Assembly (NCBI RefSeq): GCF_004116465.1
Contig: NZ_PDJV01000021.1
Coordinates: 1 to 48,297, forward strand
DNA length: 48,297 nt
Direction: 5' to 3'
From: Arcobacter sp. F2176
GTDB lineage: Bacteria > Campylobacterota > Campylobacteria > Campylobacterales > Arcobacteraceae
Made by a program: the position numbers and the translations under genes. A model generated the notes under the pieces. The model did no database searches. It was given only the letters and a program-made list of their open reading frames with translations, and was not told where the DNA came from. This document shows positions 37,401-48,297 of this stretch, piece after piece; position 1 is the stretch's first letter, and each line of letters begins with the position of its first letter.

Positions 37401-37795
37401 GGGGATGACTTGGTATCGATTAGAGCAGTGAGGATTGGTTGCATGTCGGCCTGAACATGCCGTTATACGGTTCATTTTTTTTAGACGCAAATAATACAAA
37501 TTACGCTCCAGCTTACGCTAAAGTAGCATAAGTTAAACACAGACTCGCCTAACGGCTTGAGACTTTGGAGGTTTCCACTACAGATTCTATCTATGTAGTA
37601 TTACGGAGATTCACCCTAGATAGATTATCATTTTAGAGTTGATTTGACTATTTTGAGACATTTAAAATCTTAGCTTCACAATATGCCTTGCAGGTTGAGT
37701 TGTTGTAAAGTGAAATTCTTCAACCTTTTACTAAACATGTAGACGCTGGTAGTAGCTGTTTTAAGACTCCGGTTCAATTCCGGACATCTCCACCA
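37401..37795 (+). ncRNA. ssrA: tmRNA
   Basis: A 395-nt transfer-messenger RNA. The tRNA-like 5' half is GGGGATGACTTGGTATCGA, and the 3' half is GGTTCAATTCCGGACATCT ending CCACCA with an encoded CCA. The tag reading frame starts at GCA 37487 and ends at TAA 37529-37531, giving ANNTNYAPAYAKVA, close to other Campylobacterota tags. The 3' half also serves as the likely integration site of the following island, whose integrase starts 194 bp downstream. Confidence 0.97.
37771..37795 (+). other. Inferred left attachment site (attL) in the ssrA 3' end
   Basis: The T-arm and acceptor end of ssrA (GGTTCAATTCCGGACATCTC and CACCA) directly precede a P4-type integrase gene and non-core genes. Such integrases usually use tRNA or tmRNA 3' ends. 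The matching right copy is not present up to the window end, so the island must extend further. The exact core is unknown. Confidence 0.55.
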
Positions 37796-37989: not shown

Positions 37990-39225
37990 ATGGCAAGAAC
38001 TATCATACCTTTGACTAATATAGAAATTAAATCTGCAAAACCTAAAGAAAAAGATTATAAACTTTTTGATGGTGGAGGTCTTTTCTTATTAGTTGTAAAA
38101 TCTGGTGGAAAAAGATGGAGATTAAAATATAGATTCAATAATAAAGAAAAAGTTTTATCTATAGGAACATATCCAACAATTTCTCTAAAAGATGCTAGAG
38201 AGATTAGAGATGATTATAAAAATCTAATCGCAAAAGGCATTGATCCCATTGAACAAAAAAGACAAGCTAAAGAAGAAAACAATACAAATGAAAAGAAAAA
38301 AGAGAACACATTTTATAAAGTTTCTCAAGAATGGCATAAAAATTATGAATCAGAAGTTTCTGAAAATTATCATGATAAATTAGGAAAAGCACTACAAAAC
38401 TATATTTATCCATTTATAAAGAATCAATCAATAGAAGATATAAGTAGATTAAATATCATTGAAATACTACAAGACTTAAAAAATAAAGGAATTGTAGAAA
38501 CTGCTAATAGAGTTTATACGACATTAAACAAAATATATAAATATGCAGTAACATTAGAATACACTTCACACAACATAATAGCTGACATAGAAAAAAAAAC
38601 AATCTTAGGTAAGAGAGAAAAAAGACACTACCCTACTTTTACGAAAGATAAAGATATAAAAGCTTTACTTCTTGCTATTAATGACTATAACGGAGATTAC
38701 TCAACAAAAATGGCATTAAAAATGCTTCCTTATGTTTTTGTTAGAAGTTTTAATATTAGATATTGTGAATGGTCTGAAATAGATTTTGAAAATAAACTAT
38801 GGATTATCCCAAAAGAAAAAATGAAAACAAAAATAGAATTTATACTTCCATTACCAAACCAAGTAATAAACTTACTAAATGAAATAAAACCATTTTCAGG
38901 AAGTGGTAAATATGTATTTCCAAGTTTTAGAGATAAAGATAAACCTATGAGTGATAATACTATTATTGGAGCATTAAGAAGAATGGGTTATGCAAAAGAT
39001 GAACTTGTAGCACATAGTTTTAGAGCTATGTTTTCTACAATAGCTTACGAAAATGCAAATACTGAAAATGGGCATAAATATACAGGAGAAGTTATCGAAG
39101 CCCTACTTGCTCATAAAGAACAAAATAAAATAAAAGCAGCTTATAATAGAGCATTATATAGAGACAGCATGAGAGGTTTAATTGAATGGTATGCTGAATA
39201 TTTGGATTATATAAAATGTAAATAA
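37990..39225 (+). CDS. int: P4-type tyrosine integrase of the ssrA island
   Basis: A 411-aa integrase. The N-terminal arm-binding domain (DUF4102) includes GLFLLVVKSGGKRWRLKYRF and SIGTYPTISLKDARE. A SAM-like core-binding domain covers about 105-200. The catalytic domain has the first Arg in VFVRSFNIRYCEW, HSFRAMF (His-x-x-Arg) and a C-terminal LLAHKEQNKIKAAYNRALY with the nucleophilic Tyr. All catalytic residues seem present, so it may be active. The start ATG follows AAAGGATTCAC. Its place immediately after ssrA defines the left end of the island. Confidence 0.95.
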   Translation: MARTIIPLTNIEIKSAKPKEKDYKLFDGGGLFLLVVKSGGKRWRLKYRFNNKEKVLSIGTYPTISLKDAREIRDDYKNLIAKGIDPIEQKRQAKEENNTNEKKKENTFYKVSQEWHKNYESEVSENYHDKLGKALQNYIYPFIKNQSIEDISRLNIIEILQDLKNKGIVETANRVYTTLNKIYKYAVTLEYTSHNIIADIEKKTILGKREKRHYPTFTKDKDIKALLLAINDYNGDYSTKMALKMLPYVFVRSFNIRYCEWSEIDFENKLWIIPKEKMKTKIEFILPLPNQVINLLNEIKPFSGSGKYVFPSFRDKDKPMSDNTIIGALRRMGYAKDELVAHSFRAMFSTIAYENANTENGHKYTGEVIEALLAHKEQNKIKAAYNRALYRDSMRGLIEWYAEYLDYIKCK

Positions 39226-39294: not shown

Positions 39295-39513
39295 TTAAAA
39301 AGATTTTTCATTTTGAATAATATAAGATATTAATTCTTTTCTATTTTTCTCTTTAATATAATTTGTTTGAAGTATTCTTCTAGAATTCATTCTTATTTCA
39401 TACATACTTACATTTATATTAGAAGTTTTCGAAACAACTGTATGAGTATTTGATGTATTTTCATATGTAAAATCTATTTCTAGTTGCTTAATTTTTCTAT
39501 TAGTTTTCACCAT
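39295..39513 (-). CDS. Hypothetical 72-aa protein overlapping the deaminase gene
   Basis: A small basic protein (IKQLEIDFTYEN, then a Lys/Asn/Arg-rich helix RRILQTNYIKEKNRKELISY). It starts at ATG 39511-39513, 14 nt inside the end of the deaminase gene, so its translation is coupled to it. No family is recognised. The tight coupling suggests a modulator or partner of the deaminase, but this is inference only. Confidence 0.6.
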   Translation of the reverse strand: MVKTNRKIKQLEIDFTYENTSNTHTVVSKTSNINVSMYEIRMNSRRILQTNYIKEKNRKELISYIIQNEKSF

Positions 39514-41044
39514 TTTCAGCCCCTTCTTCTTTTATTAATCCACACTCAACCAATGCATGAATTGCTTGGTTTTCTAAAGTTGGAATTGCTTGTAACGATA
39601 TTCTACTTTTAGGACGAGCAATTTTTATATCTTGTTTTATAATTTTACCATCTTTATTCTTTCGTTCTTCCTTCATGGAAAAGAAATTAAGATACTTTCT
39701 TGGAGATACTCCATCATATGCAAGTATTCTAACTTTTTTATTATCACTTTCATCTTCTGTTAATGCATCACTATGTAATGTCATACCTAAACTTTTCTTA
39801 TAGGGTTCAATATAATAAATATTTTTGATACCAGCTAAGATGATGTGTCTTGCACAATTATGACAAGGATAAGTAGTACAATATAAATTACCTCCAACCA
39901 TTTTATTATTAGTCATTTGGCTACCAATAATAATAGCATGCATTTCTGCATGAATAGATCTAGAGTACTCAATAATATTCTTAAATTTAGATTTTTTAAT
40001 TATATCCATAACATTTTTTATATCTTTACTATTTTGAGCAAGTGCTTTTCCAATTTCTTCTTCAATATTGTCTAAAATACCAGTTCTATGTGTTACATTA
40101 CTACAATATCCTAAGTCTTTACACCTTTTATTATCTGTATCAGTATATAGATTACCACCAAACTTTGGTACATCATTCCAGCCACGTGCAATTGTAACTC
40201 CATTTTCATCAGTAATTGTTGCTCCCACTTGTCGAGATAAACAGGCAGAATTACCAGCTGAAGATTTAGCATTATACATTGCCTCTTCATCACTATTAGG
40301 CGTAATTATTTTAGTATCAAAGATAAGATGCATATATCTATTTATTCTTTCATGAAGTGATTTCTTATTTACTTTAGAACTTCTAATAAAAATATCTCCA
40401 TTTATAAATGTATCTCTTACATTTTGACCAAATAAATCATTTTCATATTCATCTGAAGCCATTATACTCTTGATTTCATCGTTAGATAATCCATTATTTC
40501 TTAAATTTTCTTTTCTCTCCTCTTCAGGTGAAAAAATACTAAATAAATAGAATATATCTCCATAAATAGATTGTAATAATTTTAGTTCTTCATAGTTTTT
40601 TAAAGAATCTATTATATAGCATTTTCTTCTTGATGTTGCATCCGTCGTTTTTTTTATTTTTCTTTCTTCTCGTATTTGTTTAATTGCTAATTCAATAAGA
40701 ATTGATTTATTATTATATTTAGTTCTTAAGTTATCTCCACCTTCTATTTTCCACATCAAATTAGAATAGGCAGGTGTTTTACCAACTTCACTATTAGGAG
40801 AAACATCGTAGTACGTTTCAATAAAATCAGATACTTTTATATACTCTATTTCATAATTATAATCAGTCAATCTTTTTTTTATTGCTTCTATAACATAATC
40901 TCTATTAGAACCAATGGGAGAACAAATACCTATTATTAATTCATCAGTAGATGTATTTTCAATTTTTTCTTTTGTAGTTGATGATGTTGTTGTTAATTTA
41001 AATAGAGCAGAATCTTCAGTTTTTTTTAGTACAGCACTTGACAT
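39500..41044 (-). CDS. Anti-phage dCTP-deaminase-like protein (P-loop plus deaminase)
   Basis: A 514-aa two-domain protein. An N-terminal nucleotide-kinase-like domain has a P-loop-like GICSPIGSNR (residues 39-48) without the usual GKS/T, so it may sense rather than phosphorylate. The C-terminal domain is a cytidine/deoxycytidylate deaminase with CLSRQVGATI, the zinc His and catalytic Glu in SIHAEMHAII (His365, Glu367) and PCHNC at about 393-397. The architecture is that of phage-defence deaminases that deplete dCTP during infection. It is first in a two-gene unit in an integrase island, which fits defence. The start ATG has AGGA upstream. Confidence 0.85.
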   Translation of the reverse strand: MSSAVLKKTEDSALFKLTTTSSTTKEKIENTSTDELIIGICSPIGSNRDYVIEAIKKRLTDYNYEIEYIKVSDFIETYYDVSPNSEVGKTPAYSNLMWKIEGGDNLRTKYNNKSILIELAIKQIREERKIKKTTDATSRRKCYIIDSLKNYEELKLLQSIYGDIFYLFSIFSPEEERKENLRNNGLSNDEIKSIMASDEYENDLFGQNVRDTFINGDIFIRSSKVNKKSLHERINRYMHLIFDTKIITPNSDEEAMYNAKSSAGNSACLSRQVGATITDENGVTIARGWNDVPKFGGNLYTDTDNKRCKDLGYCSNVTHRTGILDNIEEEIGKALAQNSKDIKNVMDIIKKSKFKNIIEYSRSIHAEMHAIIIGSQMTNNKMVGGNLYCTTYPCHNCARHIILAGIKNIYYIEPYKKSLGMTLHSDALTEDESDNKKVRILAYDGVSPRKYLNFFSMKEERKNKDGKIIKQDIKIARPKSRISLQAIPTLENQAIHALVECGLIKEEGAENGEN

Positions 41045-41089
41045 TTTTTTCCTATATTTAATAAATTAAAGGTAATATTAATTAACGTG

Positions 41090-41095
41090 ATTATA
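41090..41095 (-). promoter_or_regulatory. Candidate -10 box of the deaminase gene
   Basis: On the minus strand a perfect TATAAT sits 45 nt before the deaminase start, with the ribosome site TATAGGAA downstream of it. It is the only good -10 in this AT-rich spacer; support is by inspection only. Confidence 0.4.
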
Positions 41096-41186
41096 TTAAA
41101 ATTTTCCTAATATATTAATAAATAACAAATTTAATTACACACAGCAAAATTCCGAGGACAGTTTATCTAATTATTTAAATAAACAA

Positions 41187-41385
41187 TCAAATCCCCTTCA
41201 ACTTATCCTTAAACTCAATAACCTTTTTAACCAAAGGCAATAAACCAATATTTTGTATAAACTCTGCATCGCTTAAATTACTCAAAGCAAAGTTTCTTAA
41301 TAATCTAGATTTTCTTATATTTACACACCTTATTTGCACAGTATTTTTAATTTTATCTTCTTGAATATCCCATAATTCCTATGTT
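41187..41385 (-). pseudogene. Open-frame remnant, possibly the 3' end of a plasmid rep gene
   Basis: About 60 codons are open on the minus strand, ending at TGA 41187-41189. The last part reads RKSRLLRNFALSNLSDAEF then IQNIGLLPLVKKVIEFKDKL and looks like real protein. There is no start codon with a ribosome site, and a TAG closes the frame upstream. One iteron copy (41326-41346) falls inside the frame, so a coding 3' end seems fused to origin DNA by deletion. Its direction, with iterons upstream, is that of a rep gene, but the family is not recognised. Confidence 0.4.
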
Positions 41386-41823
41386 TTAGCTCTTGATTCT
41401 AAGACATTACTCTTAATTTATTTATATATTCGTTTGATACCTACCTTATATTGTGAGTATTTATTTGATTTTATTTTAGTAAATGCCTATAATCCCCCAA
41501 ATTTCTTGATTTTTTTAAAGTCACCTACCTTATATTGTAAGATTTTTATATAGTTTACCTACCTTATATTGTGAGTATTTTTTAATTAGATACCTTATTT
41601 GGTAAGATTTTTACAATTTATCTACCTTATATTGTGAGTATTTATTTGATTTTATTTTAGTAAATGCCTATAATCCCCCAAATTTCTTGATTTTTTAAAA
41701 GTCACCTACCTTATATTGTAAGATTTTTATATACTTTACCTACCTTATATTATGAGTATTTTTTAATTAGACACCTTATTTGGTAAGACTTTTTTATTTA
41801 CATACCTTATTTGCACAGTATTT
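41326..41823 (+). repeat. Array of ten iteron-like repeats (plasmid-type origin)
   Basis: Ten direct copies of a ~21-bp element of the type TACCTTATATTGTGAGTATT. They start at 41326, 41442, 41526, 41560, 41591, 41623, 41707, 41741, 41772 and 41803. Subtypes occur: TTGTGAG, TTGTAAG, TTGGTAAG and TTGCACAG. All lie in one orientation in very AT-rich DNA. Such same-strand ~20-bp repeats next to a rep gene are the hallmark of theta-replicating plasmid origins. Here no intact rep gene is present, so the origin is probably a relic or relies on a factor in trans. Confidence 0.75.
41440..41801 (+). repeat. 181-bp tandem duplication within the iteron array
   Basis: The block 41440-41620 recurs at 41621-41801. 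Each holds four iterons at the same offsets (181 bp apart pair by pair) and the segment TAGTAAATGCCTATAATCCC. The copies differ by only a few changes, such as TTGTGAG versus TTATGAG in the third iteron, so the duplication is fairly recent. Confidence 0.9.
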
Positions 41824-42000
41824 TTAATTATCAAACTCATAAAAAACGTTATAGTCTCCTACTTTTAATAATTATTGTAAGTTTAGTCTAATACTTATTA
41901 TAAAGAATCTCGTTTGAAAAAAAATTAAGCATCATAAAATTAAAAATTATTTGATTTTTTTATCATATTTTTAATTCTGCAACAAAAATCCAATTTAAAA

Positions 42001-42480
42001 AAACTGCATAAAAACTGTCACTCAATGCACCGTAAAATCGGGAAAAGTGAAAAAATGACTTTTGCACTTAAAGGTCATTCTTGCTTTTTAAAAAAAATGG
42101 TGTTTTTTAATGGGTCTAAAAATTAAAAACTGCATAAAAACTGTCACTCAATGCACCGTAAAATCGGGAAAAGTGAAAAAATGACTTTTGCACTTAAAGG
42201 TCATTCTTGCTTTTTAAAAAAAATGGTGTTTTTTAATGGGTGTAAAAATTAAAAACTGCATAAAAACTGTCACTCAATACACCATAAAATCGAGAAAAGT
42301 GGGAAAATGACTTTTGCACTTTCTGCAATCCAAAAATGGTTTATTATCTAAAAGGCAAGAAATGGCATTTTTACCATATTTATTATTATATATAAAAATT
42401 TACTATTTAAAAAAAACTGCATAAAAACTGTCACTCAATGTACCATGAAATCGGAAAAAGTAGAAAAATGACTTTTGCAC
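42001..42480 (+). repeat. Four copies of an unexplained ~70-nt element
   Basis: Copies begin at 42001, 42127, 42253 and 42414 with AAACTGCATAAAAACTGTCA and end TGACTTTTGCACTT. The first two form nearly identical 126-bp tandem units; copies three and four are diverged in their flanks. Within a unit, AAGTGAAAA can pair with TTTTGCACTT, and alternatively AATGAC can pair with GTCATT downstream, so two hairpins exclude each other. The AATGAC/GTCATT pairing persists in copy four despite different loop sequence. No frame of note crosses the copies. They may be part of the plasmid-type origin or an RNA array. Confidence 0.8.
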
Positions 42481-42674
42481 TTTTATCCTTATTTTATAGT
42501 CATTCTTATCTCATAAGCTAAAAATAACTCAAAATCATTTTTTTTTAGAAAAAACATACATTTTTTAAGCTTCCACCAGTATTCATTTAAGTTTCAGAAA
42601 TTAAACCTTAAACTAGTTTAAGATTAGATTGATTTTATAGAGCAATTAATTTTATATTTATAAATATTTATACT

Positions 42675-44383: not shown

Positions 44384-45043
44384 TTATATTTCATTTAAAA
44401 TCTTCATAAAATCTTGTGTTATATGACTATAGATAGCATATTCAGCATGTATGTTTTTTTCATAATTTGGTGAAGGTTTTTCTATACCAGATAACCTAAA
44501 ATTCTTTTTTGTCATCTCATCAAAAATCTGTAACTTAATACATTTTTTATAAGTAAAATAATCAATAGTTTTATTAATTTCAAAATAACCTCTATCCATA
44601 GTATTCTCAGGTAATATTAGATTATTTTTAATAGATAAAAAATCCATATCATTTAATTGTAAAACAATATTTATTAATTCAGCTTCTTGATATTGTAGTG
44701 TTTTATTACGTATTAGCTCAACCGATAGTCTTGCTAAAAACTTAGCTTGCATTTCATATGTAGTTCTTCTTGCATTTTCTATAAATTCATATAAATAGTT
44801 TAAGTTTTTATTATTAGTTACTAAATCGTTATAAAACTCTTTTTTTTCTTTATCACTAATTTTACTATGTTCGTATGCAAAATATTCAAGTCGCTGAGAA
44901 AACCTATTTACTATGTAATCGTCCATACAATTTTTTAACGATTCTAATTTTGACTCTTGATAAAAAAATTTACATGCAAATAATCCTATATTATAGCCTT
45001 CTTGTGCTATCTCTTCTGCAATATCAACTAAATTGTATTTCAT
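44384..45043 (-). CDS. Hypothetical 219-aa protein downstream of the two-frame nuclease-like gene
   Basis: A soluble, mostly helical protein. Helical segments such as LIRNKTLQYQEAELINIVLQ and a motif-poor C-terminus give no family. There is no signal peptide or membrane helix. The ATG follows AGAGGAAATAATT and lies 49 nt after the stop of the large upstream gene in the same direction, so the genes form one operon. An accessory or immunity role is possible but not shown. Confidence 0.75.
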   Translation of the reverse strand: MKYNLVDIAEEIAQEGYNIGLFACKFFYQESKLESLKNCMDDYIVNRFSQRLEYFAYEHSKISDKEKKEFYNDLVTNNKNLNYLYEFIENARRTTYEMQAKFLARLSVELIRNKTLQYQEAELINIVLQLNDMDFLSIKNNLILPENTMDRGYFEINKTIDYFTYKKCIKLQIFDEMTKKNFRLSGIEKPSPNYEKNIHAEYAIYSHITQDFMKILNEI

Positions 45044-45092
45044 CTAATTATTTCCTCTAAAATTAAATAATTGTACTTTCCCCATATATCAT

Positions 45093-47135
45093 TTATTCAA
45101 AATCAGATAATAAATGATACAAAGTAATCTCCTTATTATTTTTCTTCCGAATTTCTTTGAAAATCTTTAAGTTCACTTTTTTTGAATCAATCTCGTCAAA
45201 AATATTGTTGGATAAATTTGTATTATCAAAACCTTTATATTGTTGATTTACTAAATAGTTTTTATAGTTATTACATAATGTAAAAAATTCTTTCACTTTA
45301 CAATAAACTAAAACAACGACAACATTACAACCTTTTGCATTATAGCCATCTAACTTATCCATATGTGATTTAATAGTCTGTCGTGAACATCCAAATAATC
45401 TAAATGCTTCTATTAAGAATAAATCATCTTTAGATTGATTTGAAACAATAATATCCCGTTCTCCTGCACTCTTATCAGTTGCTGAATTCCCTCCACGTGA
45501 TTGATCTCTAGCTGACCAGTTAATAAAACCCATTCTTTGGTTTATTAATGATGTCACCCAGTCATTAATCATATCTTCTATAAAGAGTTTTTTGCTTTTA
45601 TTTTTTACATTTTCTCTACGTTCTAATAATTCTAATGATATTAAACGCATATTTTCTAAAATAAATTCTTCCAAAGATAATTCTTCTTCTCTAGGAAATA
45701 TTTTAGCATGATGTTCATCTATCATATTTTTTATTTTTAACCAATATACTTTTGCTTCTTCAGGAGTTAATATTATTGAACTTGAGTTGATTTTAAGTAT
45801 TTGTTTACTTTTATATGCAACTTCATATTCATTTACTAAATCATCTTTAATTTTTTCTAATTCATCCTTTTTAGATTTGTCAATTTCTTTATGAAAAATA
45901 AAAACTTCTTCTAAGTATTTAATTGCTGTTGCAGACATTTGTTGTTTCTGTAAAAACTTACATCTTATAGGGACAATATCCAAGTCATTCTTTAAATACT
46001 CTGGCATTGTATTCCAATAATACAAAAATTTATCAAAATTATTTATAATTTGATAGCCTTCAAGTAAAATTACATATTCACTTTTATCTAAAATATTATT
46101 TTCAAATTGGATTGATAAATTCTCCCATTCTAAAAGAGCATCTTTATATGACTCTAAATAATTATCATCATCTTTATTAAGCAGCTTACAACGAACAATC
46201 AATAAGTTTAGCGCATATATTGGTTGAATAGAGTCATTTAAAATAGCTTTTAAAATTTTATAAGTTTTCTCAGGTTCTTCTTCAAAATATAATAAAGCTA
46301 CTATAAATCTTCTATGTCTTTCCATTTCTTCTTGCATTGATTGTTTAAAACTACCGAAGTTTTTTCTATCATTAAATGGGTTTTCAACTTTATTGAGTTT
46401 CTTTATTTTATCTTTAGTCTGTAAAACCTTTTGATTAAAGATTTTTAATAAATCCTTTTTATACTTTATTTCTTTGTAGATTTTTTTAAAATGATCTGAT
46501 TTTTGATTATTTTCTAAAATGTCTAATAATGGCTCAGAATAATCTTCCAATTCATTTTCATTTAATGTTAAAACTAAAGTATCAATTATCTCAAACATAT
46601 GGGAAAAGTCTTCTTCTCCTATTTGTCTTGTCTTTAATTTTTTAAATACCTCTTTTCTTATTTCTGTAGATGTAGAGTACTTTAATACTTCAAAAATATT
46701 TGCAATACTTGTATTGTTTAAAAGATACGCTAAAATCTCTTTTCTATTATCATTATGAAACTGATTAAAAAATTCTAAAAACATACCAATTAAGTTATGT
46801 TCATTTTTTTCTAAAAATGGTTGAAAAATATTTTTCTTCCAATCAGTATTATCGGTATATTCTTTTACAATAATAACTAGAGCATTTTCTATTAATACTT
46901 TATCTTTTTCAACAGATATTTTATATAAGTTTAGTAAAAACCTAAAGTGCACTCTAATTGTATGTAGAATATGGAAAACATCATCATCTTTATAGTCTTT
47001 GTTAGATATTAAAGTAGTGCTAGAATTAAATAGACTCTCTTTTTGTTTGTTTGTAGATAATTGAACCAATAAACTCCAATCAAATTGATCCATAATACTA
47101 TCTTCAGATAAACCATGGTTTTTTAAAGCATACAT
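45093..47135 (-). CDS. Large helical protein with possible C-terminal PD-(D/E)XK-like domain (3' part of a two-frame gene)
   Basis: 680 residues from ATG 47135, but no ribosome site precedes that ATG and the frame stays open up to 47195, where the upstream 367-aa frame ends. The first ~480 residues are helical repeats rich in Leu, Asp and Lys. The last ~150 contain SATDKSAGERDIIVSN then LFLIEAFRLFG and GCNVVVVLVYCKVKEFF. This is a core strand pattern like PD-(D/E)XK nucleases, with Asp in GERDII and Glu in IEAF; the usual Lys is missing or moved. I do not recognise the family. In an integrase island, a defence role is plausible. Confidence 0.7.
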   Translation of the reverse strand: MYALKNHGLSEDSIMDQFDWSLLVQLSTNKQKESLFNSSTTLISNKDYKDDDVFHILHTIRVHFRFLLNLYKISVEKDKVLIENALVIIVKEYTDNTDWKKNIFQPFLEKNEHNLIGMFLEFFNQFHNDNRKEILAYLLNNTSIANIFEVLKYSTSTEIRKEVFKKLKTRQIGEEDFSHMFEIIDTLVLTLNENELEDYSEPLLDILENNQKSDHFKKIYKEIKYKKDLLKIFNQKVLQTKDKIKKLNKVENPFNDRKNFGSFKQSMQEEMERHRRFIVALLYFEEEPEKTYKILKAILNDSIQPIYALNLLIVRCKLLNKDDDNYLESYKDALLEWENLSIQFENNILDKSEYVILLEGYQIINNFDKFLYYWNTMPEYLKNDLDIVPIRCKFLQKQQMSATAIKYLEEVFIFHKEIDKSKKDELEKIKDDLVNEYEVAYKSKQILKINSSSIILTPEEAKVYWLKIKNMIDEHHAKIFPREEELSLEEFILENMRLISLELLERRENVKNKSKKLFIEDMINDWVTSLINQRMGFINWSARDQSRGGNSATDKSAGERDIIVSNQSKDDLFLIEAFRLFGCSRQTIKSHMDKLDGYNAKGCNVVVVLVYCKVKEFFTLCNNYKNYLVNQQYKGFDNTNLSNNIFDEIDSKKVNLKIFKEIRKKNNKEITLYHLLSDFE

Positions 47136-47182
47136 TAGTGAAGATTGATAAAGATTAATAATATCGGAGATAATAATAGTAT

Positions 47183-48286
47183 TTAATTGAAAAAATCATC
47201 ATTTTCACTAATCTCTAAAGATTCTTTATGACTTTTATTTAAAAGCCATAACAATAAATGTATTTTTTCATATGGAAGATGAAAACTTAGACCTCTACCT
47301 ATATTACTGTTGATAATTTTTTTAGAAATACTGGGTAAAGTAAGTCTCAATAAAGATTGTTTAGGATGATTTGAAACTTGAATCACCATTACTTTTTCAA
47401 AAAACTTTAATACATTATTTAAATAAAAAGATTGCTCTTGATTCATAGAGTAATGGTTTTCTACCATTAAAATAAGTAAATTAGAAATAATATTAGAACT
47501 CTTTTGTATATCAATAAATTTTTCAAAAAATGAAAAGAAAACTTCAATTGATTGATTCCATATCATTTCTTTCCACTGAAGTACATAGTCATTTGAATTT
47601 GTTCTAAGTGTTGGTAAATTATTATTTGACAAAATATGTTTCATTCCAATAGTCAATGTTTCTGAACTACTTAAATAAAAAGGAATTAACGAATCATTAA
47701 ATAAAGTTGTTAAAAGTTGACCCGCTAAAAATGGTCTACTTTGGCAATCATTAAATAATTTTTTTGTTCTTGAAAAACTATTTTCTTCATTATATATAAA
47801 TACATCATTTATTATTACAAAATAAATCAAATCCTCATATATAGTTATACCTGTTGGAAAAATTCTGTCTGTAATTGCTCTATTGTTCCACCATAAAAAA
47901 GCATCTAATATATTATTTTCAGGGTTAAGTTTTCTTAATTCATTTGGTAATTCAATGTTTGTACTATAAATTGAAAAGTGATGCCTATTAGCCTCTAAAC
48001 AAAGTTTTTTATAGATATCATACCATGTCTCTTTCAGTTCATCTGAATTTAAAATGTAATCTACAGATTCGTCTAAAAAATCATCTTTAAACTTTTCATT
48101 TTCAAAGTCTAAATCAACTATCCCATTATAATCAAAGGCATTAGACATTAAATAAATCCATTTTTCAAAAGCATCTTTTTTTGATTTATTTTTACTATAT
48201 AATAACTTCCATAACTCACTACCTATAGGCTTTATATCATTAGATGAAAATTGAAAAGTATATATATTTTCATCTTTTTTTATCAA
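47183..48286 (-). CDS. 5' part of the two-frame gene (367 aa, unknown family)
   Basis: A soluble helical protein starting near the right edge (TTG 48286, with an in-frame TAG three codons upstream, weak ribosome site). Segments such as NPENNILDAFLWWNNRAITD and SRPFLAGQLLTTLFNDSLIP are regular protein, but no family is recognised. It ends ENDDFFN at TAA 47183-47185, directly at a T TTT TTC heptamer. Past that point the -1 frame runs without a stop into the 680-aa frame. Reading through would give one protein of about 1,060 residues. Confidence 0.7.
   Translation of the reverse strand: MIKKDENIYTFQFSSNDIKPIGSELWKLLYSKNKSKKDAFEKWIYLMSNAFDYNGIVDLDFENEKFKDDFLDESVDYILNSDELKETWYDIYKKLCLEANRHHFSIYSTNIELPNELRKLNPENNILDAFLWWNNRAITDRIFPTGITIYEDLIYFVIINDVFIYNEENSFSRTKKLFNDCQSRPFLAGQLLTTLFNDSLIPFYLSSSETLTIGMKHILSNNNLPTLRTNSNDYVLQWKEMIWNQSIEVFFSFFEKFIDIQKSSNIISNLLILMVENHYSMNQEQSFYLNNVLKFFEKVMVIQVSNHPKQSLLRLTLPSISKKIINSNIGRGLSFHLPYEKIHLLLWLLNKSHKESLEISENDDFFN
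47189..47195 (-). other. Slippery heptamer at the junction of the two frames
   Basis: On the coding strand the bases are GAT TTT TTC AAT TAA. The heptamer T TTT TTC fits the X XXY YYZ rule for -1 slippage. The new frame has its own TGA right before the heptamer and then stays open into the 680-aa frame, so the only window for switching is this heptamer. A one-base loss in the T-run, natural or from sequencing, would look the same. Confidence 0.6.
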
Positions 48287-48297
48287 CTGTTCTAATA

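What the first reader, a model, noticed from the sequence alone, without database searches (positions are those of the whole stretch)
44384..48286. Candidate new defence operon: two-frame ~1,060-aa protein with nuclease-like end plus a 219-aa partner
A 367-aa frame and a 680-aa frame meet at a slippery site; together they form a long helical-repeat protein ending in a PD-(D/E)XK-like region (GERDIIV...FLIEAF). A 219-aa unknown follows in the same operon. No part matches a family I know, and the place in an ssrA island beside a dCTP-deaminase-like gene favours defence.
Basis: inference. Interest (0 to 1): 0.75.

Follow-up and report, generated by a model that had tools for sequence, protein, structure and literature searches.

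The report
Frame-broken solenoid–nuclease gene, likely anti-phage
The window holds a large bacterial gene, cut by the contig end and split by a one-base frame break, from a rare mobile family that joins a long helical scaffold to a DNA-cutting-enzyme-like end and probably works against viruses; the small neighbouring gene is not its partner.

Summary
The frames are real but describe one broken gene, not a new two-gene system. The window is a whole contig (C21). The protein's first 154 residues lie on contig C20, directly behind a complete qatABCD anti-phage operon. Intact relatives are single frames of about 1,110-1,280 aa in Malaciobacter, a Sulfurimonas MAG, two Campylobacterota genomes, Burkholderia, Salmonella, Edwardsiella and a prophage. 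Here the frame breaks once, at a T6 run (47190-47195). Relatives have no slip site, no RNA structure follows it, and a -1 shift restores a gap-free alignment. So it is an indel or a sequencing error, not demonstrated recoding.

The C-terminal ~200 aa is very probably a PD-(D/E)XK fold. The predicted topology fits, 29 of the top 29 structural rows are restriction nucleases (best Z 7.9), and E, D, E and K are invariant in ten relatives. The canonical ExK lysine is Phe or Leu. The rest is an alpha-solenoid.

The 219-aa gene is island/prophage cargo. It occurs in five genomes without the large gene nearby, and the large gene's relatives lack it. The qat linkage is unique to this genome (absent in 9 of 9 other qat loci).

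No family in Pfam, NCBIfam, PHROGs or PADLOC covers the protein. Candidate single-gene defence nuclease; anti-phage function is inferred, not shown.

The parts
47186..48295 (-). Central part (residues ~155-524) of the large solenoid-nuclease gene. Its 5' end (residues 1-154) is on contig C20:3-464(-), locus L011.
   Evidence: 59-60% identical to L003/L004 residues 158-520; contig ends join in frame.
47189..47195 (-). Frame break at a T6 run (heptamer T_TTT_TTC); stop TAA at 47183-47185 follows.
   Evidence: Relatives lack the sequence and read through in one frame; no downstream RNA structure. A -1 shift gives a gap-free alignment to L003 over the junction (three-frame translation; L003 sequence).
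45093..47188 (-). C-terminal part of the same gene (680-aa ORF from ATG 47135; the frame is open from the break).
   Evidence: 56% identical to L003/L004. AlphaFold model: alpha-solenoid residues ~11-448, then the nuclease-like domain.
45096..45701 (-). PD-(D/E)XK-like domain (last 202 residues). Invariant E520, D561, E576, H591 and K594 of the 680-aa ORF.
   Evidence: Ten-member alignment; model; VIA-align rows 1-29 all restriction nucleases, best Z 7.9, rmsd 4.0, 123 aligned.
45453..45455 (-). Codon of D561 (GERD), putative metal ligand.
   Evidence: Invariant in 10 of 10.
45408..45410 (-). Codon of E576 (IEAF), putative metal ligand; the usual ExK lysine position is Phe.
   Evidence: Invariant in 10 of 10.
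44384..45043 (-). 219-aa gene: island/prophage cargo, not a conserved partner.
   Evidence: Homologues in five other genomes of the bacterial family, none with the large gene nearby; not beside any large-gene relative.
39500..41044 (-). Anti-phage dCTP deaminase gene (separate defence module, not part of the large gene's system).
   Evidence: NCBIfam NF041025 470.9 bits against cut-off 400; PADLOC dCTPase E 1.5e-156.
37401..37795 (+). tmRNA (ssrA), integration site of the island.
37990..39225 (+). Tyrosine integrase of the ssrA island.
   Evidence: Pfam PF13356, PF22022, PF00589.

Best explanation
One gene of a rare, horizontally moving family of ~1,110-1,280-aa proteins. About 1,000 N-terminal residues form an alpha-helical solenoid, and the C-terminal ~200 residues form a PD-(D/E)XK-type endonuclease domain. 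Its acidic residues (alpha-1 Glu, GExD Asp, EA(F/L) Glu) are invariant, and its catalytic lysine, if any, comes from the next helix (HxxK). Most likely the solenoid senses or docks on a phage-related cue or partner and releases the nuclease, which cuts DNA; that would make it a single-gene defence that sits as cargo beside other defence modules. In this genome the copy lies directly behind a complete qatABCD operon, and its frame is broken once by a one-base shortfall in a T-run, so full-length protein is not expected from the sequence as given. SHOWN: family, single-frame relatives, frame break, domain conservation, neighbourhood. PREDICTED: fold (the N-terminal third was not modelled). INFERRED: nuclease activity, sensing, anti-phage role.
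For: Full-length single-ORF relatives in 8 other records. N-terminus on C20 behind qatA-D. Purifying selection: dN/dS ~0.17 for L003/L004, ~0.29 for the two relatives in G083/G235, ~0.25 for window against L003. Invariant E/D/E/H/K set across ten proteins, including a distant two-gene P2-prophage protein next to an AAA ATPase. Model topology helix-3 strands-helix-strand-helix with those residues on the expected elements. VIA-align rows 1-29 are McrC, BstYI, OkrAI, EcoRV, BglII and BamHI, with Hachiman, Can2, Card1 and NucC just below. Weak single-member profile hits to PDDEXK_4 (E 0.034) and CARF_PDDEXK (E 0.0016). Mobility: 91.6% DNA identity over 5.1 kb between Malaciobacter and Sulfurimonas, a lone gene in a prophage, plasmid-collection copies with GC well below their flanks. 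Defence neighbours: qatABCD and dCTP deaminase here, type I R-M plus a PtuA-like ATPase in L003/L004, an OLD nuclease in Burkholderia.
Against: The fold rests on a 4-sequence AlphaFold model (mean pLDDT 65, pTM 0.64) and Z below 8, a range that can be a common arrangement. No sequence profile match reaches a curated cut-off. The ExK lysine is missing. The Campylobacterota (G083, G235), prophage and Edwardsiella copies have no recognised defence system directly beside them. No functional data exist.
Confidence: 0.62

Rival explanations
1. The frame break is a sequencing or assembly error near a contig end; the gene is intact in the organism.
For: Single one-base lesion in a homopolymer; all ~1,224 other codons are open and every key motif is kept; the assembly is fragmented (98 contigs).
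Against: The ~37 kb of chromosome left of ssrA tiles with long ORFs and no obvious split gene. qatA on the adjoining contig carries a different lesion: a shift plus ~20 missing codons, which is not a homopolymer slip.
Confidence: 0.3
2. Programmed -1 frameshifting at T_TTT_TTC joins the two frames.
For: A valid -1 slippery heptamer in the right frame; a -1 slip gives exactly the homologous protein.
Against: No relative has the heptamer or two frames; downstream RNA z-score -0.14.
Confidence: 0.07
3. The gene is a fifth component of the qat system in this lineage (a 'QatE').
For: Its ATG overlaps the qatD 3' end by 11 nt on the same strand, as in coupled operons.
Against: Absent downstream of qatD in 9 of 9 other Campylobacterota qat loci, though one of these (L043) ends 379 bp after qatD. 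GC 0.24 against 0.315 for qat. Relatives live without qat. QatBC alone defends in the published system (PMC13279940).
Confidence: 0.1
4. Two-gene defence system of the large protein plus the 219-aa protein.
For: Same strand, 49 bp apart.
Against: The 219-aa family occurs in five other genomes without the large gene nearby, one in another ssrA island and several beside prophage genes and a repressor-like gene. No relative of the large gene has it.
Confidence: 0.03
5. A mobile-element gene with a non-defence role (for example element maintenance or competition between elements).
For: Prophage, plasmid-collection and island locations; a lone gene in several of them.
Against: Neighbours in several of the contexts are defence modules.
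Confidence: 0.2

Closest known systems
PD-(D/E)XK restriction nucleases (McrC, BstYI, OkrAI, EcoRV, BglII, BamHI)
   Same: Predicted core topology and position of Asp and Glu; top 29 structural rows.
   Different: Phe/Leu replaces the ExK lysine; fused to a ~1,000-residue solenoid; no significant sequence match.
P2-EC5 prophage cassette ORF555 (AAA ATPase) + ORF333 (AM157364)
   Same: ORF333 shares the C-terminal domain, ~22-30% identical, with the same invariant residues.
   Different: ORF333 is 333 aa with a different N-terminus and has an adjacent ATPase; no large solenoid.
qatABCD (Gao et al. 2020, named from own knowledge; PMC13279940)
   Same: Directly upstream in this genome, all four genes recognised.
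   Different: The large gene is not a qat component elsewhere (0 of 9).
Upx (single-gene PD-(D/E)XK defence protein, from own knowledge)
   Same: Works-like comparison: a large single protein with a PD-(D/E)XK domain.
   Different: No PADLOC model of any kind matched six family members at E<=1; I could not confirm which model stands for Upx.

Membership tests
PD-(D/E)XK nuclease superfamily | alpha-beta-beta-beta-alpha-beta core | tested here: met
   Predicted H40-59, E63-68, E82-87, E93-102, H107-119, E127-134, H139-151; rows 1-29 of the structural comparison are superfamily members, Z 5.8-7.9. Model confidence is moderate.
PD-(D/E)XK nuclease superfamily | Conserved acidic metal ligands (Asp in beta-2, Glu/Asp in beta-3, often Glu in helix 1) | tested here: met
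   E520, D561 and E576 invariant in ten proteins.
PD-(D/E)XK nuclease superfamily | Lysine of the (D/E)xK signature | tested here: not met
   EAF/EAL instead; invariant K594 in the next helix may replace it. BamHI and BglII also lack this lysine (own knowledge), so it is a variant, not an exclusion.
PD-(D/E)XK nuclease superfamily | Nuclease activity | not testable with these tools
   Needs purified protein.
qatABCD system | Large gene is a conserved component of qat operons | tested here: not met
   Absent after qatD in 9 of 9 other qat loci of the phylum, one of them cut off 379 bp after qatD.
qatABCD system | qatA, B, C, D all present upstream in this genome | tested here: met
   PADLOC E 4.9e-88, 5.6e-31, 1.9e-102, 1.4e-80; QatB begins MGTS as in PMC13279940. 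qatA is frame-broken.
Programmed -1 frameshift genes | Slippery site kept across relatives plus a downstream stimulatory structure | tested here: not met
Known PADLOC 2023 defence families (including Upx, if modelled) | Profile match over the protein | tested here: inconclusive
   No match at E<=1 for six full-length members; the identity of the Upx model was not verified, and the library stops at 2023.
Anti-phage dCTP deaminase (neighbouring gene only) | Equivalog score | tested here: met
   NF041025 470.9 against 400 bits.

The most novel reading that the evidence does not exclude
An undescribed, widely scattered single-protein anti-phage family: a ~1,000-residue solenoid sensor with a PD-(D/E)XK nuclease whose catalytic lysine has moved to the following helix, which attaches itself to the 3' end of other defence operons (qat, type I R-M with a PtuA-like ATPase, OLD).
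Probability: 0.4. Interest if true: 0.65.

Novelty: new variant of a known kind. Interest (0 to 1): 0.42.

Why it matters
If intact members protect against phages, they would add a one-gene defence family that current annotation libraries miss, with an unusual nuclease active site and a testable sensor scaffold. It also warns that gene pairs in a single island (here with the 219-aa gene and with qat) can be accidental, and that a slippery-looking site in a draft contig can simply be a broken frame.

Tried and rejected
Pfam, NCBIfam, PHROGs and PADLOC scans of window and relatives found no family for the large protein or the 219-aa protein.

PDB sequence searches found no credible match.

Foldseek on the 680-aa model gave only generic TPR/solenoid matches (best E 8e-4). 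Foldseek on the domain alone ranked NucC first (E 0.022) but mixed it with phosphatases, and the viral library gave no informative hit. The VIA-align second look separated the nucleases.

Viral contigs gave one relative only. The E. coli genomes have no DNA-level relative of the Salmonella gene, while the P2-EC5 cassette is in 4 of 5,426.

Qat as a conserved partner was rejected, as was the 219-aa gene. The far ssrA attachment repeat was sought in C21 and in the first 20 kb of C20 and not found.

Literature searches found no paper describing the family; the held library lacks most subscription papers.
Full report
WHAT IS IN THE SEQUENCE. The minus-strand frames of 680 aa (45093-47135), 367 aa from TTG (47183-48286) and 219 aa (44384-45043) exist, and shuffled sequence gives no stop-free run above 137 codons. 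The window is a complete contig, C21, so the 5' end of the long gene is missing. A search of the same genome with the intact Malaciobacter relative found the missing start on contig C20:24-464. The ends of C20 and C21 share TATT and continue in frame. Joined in order, the protein is about 1,224 aa, close to the 1,226-1,230 aa of its nearest relatives.

ONE GENE, ONE FRAME BREAK. Relatives are single open frames: Malaciobacter halophilus L003 (1,230 aa) and Sulfurimonas MAG L004 (1,226 aa), both 56-60% identical to the window pieces; genomes G083 and G235 (1,280 and ~1,110 aa, about 33-37% identical over the best-matching part); Burkholderia, Salmonella and Edwardsiella records (1,252-1,269 aa); and a prophage contig, L017 (1,258 aa). 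In the window the frame breaks at T6 (47190-47195). Reading on in the -1 frame (DDFFQLNT...) aligns to L003 without any gap, so exactly one base separates the two frames. T_TTT_TTC would allow -1 slippage, but L003 and L004 lack it and the RNA after it folds no better than shuffles (z -0.14). An indel or a sequencing error is therefore more likely than recoding. qatA on the adjoining contig has an independent lesion: a shift with about 20 codons missing relative to other QatA proteins.

NEIGHBOURHOOD. Upstream on C20 lie qatD, qatC, qatB and qatA, then a 1,301-aa MkoC-like helicase. The large gene's ATG overlaps the qatD 3' end by 11 nt. Downstream are the 219-aa gene, an anti-phage dCTP deaminase, an integrase and ssrA. 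The region is thus a defence island at ssrA. The far attachment repeat was not found in the sequence held, so it is not proven that the qat part belongs to the same element. GC differs between modules: large gene 0.24, qat 0.315, contig left of ssrA 0.277.

PARTNERS TESTED. Nine other qat loci of the phylum have no copy after qatD, with the caveat that one of them (L043) ends 379 bp after qatD. The 219-aa family occurs in five other genomes of the bacterial family. None has the large gene nearby; one copy lies in another ssrA island (L059), and most are beside prophage genes or a repressor-like gene. Neither is a conserved partner. In L003 and L004 the large gene instead follows hsdM/hsdS, a PtuA-like AAA ATPase and a 470-aa gene; in Burkholderia it follows an OLD-type nuclease; in the prophage, Edwardsiella, Salmonella and the two Campylobacterota genomes it has no partner directly beside it. 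It behaves as a stand-alone cargo gene.

FAMILY AND SELECTION. It is rare: 3 of 397 genomes of the phylum with the profile search. The L003 and L004 copies are 91.6% identical in DNA over 5.1 kb although the hosts belong to different genera, which points to recent transfer. dN/dS is about 0.17 (L003/L004), 0.29 (G083/G235 pair) and 0.25 (window/L003), so the family is under purifying selection.

THE C-TERMINAL DOMAIN. Across ten proteins, including ORF333 of the P2-EC5 prophage cassette, these positions are invariant: Glu in the first helix, GE-x-D, E-A, and H-x-x-K in the next helix. A 202-residue AlphaFold model from four sequences (mean pLDDT 65, pTM 0.64) has helix, three strands, helix, strand, helix in the right order, with those residues on the expected elements. 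In the VIA-align comparison rows 1-29 are restriction nucleases of several unrelated families (best Z 7.9, rmsd 4.0, 123 aligned), and Hachiman, Can2, Card1 and NucC follow among some unrelated rows. Z below 8 alone would be weak; the consistency of the rows is what carries weight. Weak profile hits of single members point the same way (PDDEXK_4 E 0.034, CARF_PDDEXK E 0.0016). The signature lysine is replaced by Phe or Leu, so activity must be tested, not assumed. The rest of the 680-aa model is an alpha-solenoid; the N-terminal half was not modelled.

MECHANISM, AS INFERENCE. The most economical reading is a sensor or docking scaffold with a tethered nuclease that cuts DNA when triggered by infection. 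The fold is predicted; nuclease activity, trigger and anti-phage effect are inferred from domain and neighbourhood. In this genome the copy is probably inactive unless the frame break is an error.

VERDICT. The two-frame fusion, the length and the 219-aa partnership do not hold. The family is a new variant of a known kind, worth testing through its intact relatives rather than this copy.

Noticed in passing
window 41045-42674: A 1.6-kb stretch without ORFs of 65 aa or more between the dCTP deaminase and a small HTH gene. It holds tandem repeats: four 126-nt units (two 99% alike), two 181-nt units (97%), and repeated ACCTTAT-type iterons in ~65-nt units. Possible replication iterons, regulator sites or a non-coding RNA of the deaminase module.
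   Followed up: partly
L011 3331-5158 (contig C20): qatA is split by a frameshift with about 20 codons missing relative to other QatA proteins, so the qat operon may be decaying or reduced to QatBC.
   Followed up: partly
L011 5225-9130: 1,301-aa helicase with a strong partial match to MkoC (PADLOC, E 2e-85) upstream of qat: possibly another defence module.
   Followed up: no
L011 9525-10194: Overlapping small genes that look like a nucleotidyltransferase/HEPN toxin-antitoxin pair (by eye).
   Followed up: no
L003 3056-6357 and L004 3086-6351: A PtuA-like AAA ATPase and a 470/464-aa protein with its own PD-(D/E)XK-looking end (FDIVF...GEAEGKD) lie between hsdM/S and the large gene: possibly a separate multi-gene defence system.
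   Followed up: partly
L012 243-2913 (phage P2-EC5): AAA ATPase plus ORF333 with the same EA(L)-type nuclease-like domain; present in only 4 of 5,426 complete E. coli genomes. An uncharacterised P2 cargo cassette.
   Followed up: partly
L005 166-4008: The G083 homologue carries an extra C-terminal GNAT acetyltransferase domain (PF13673, E 2.6e-9) absent from its 82%-identical relative in G235.
   Followed up: no
L059-L063: The 219-aa family (220-254 aa) recurs beside a repressor-like gene, prophage late genes and Dam methylase, or in another ssrA island: an undescribed phage/island gene family.
   Followed up: partly
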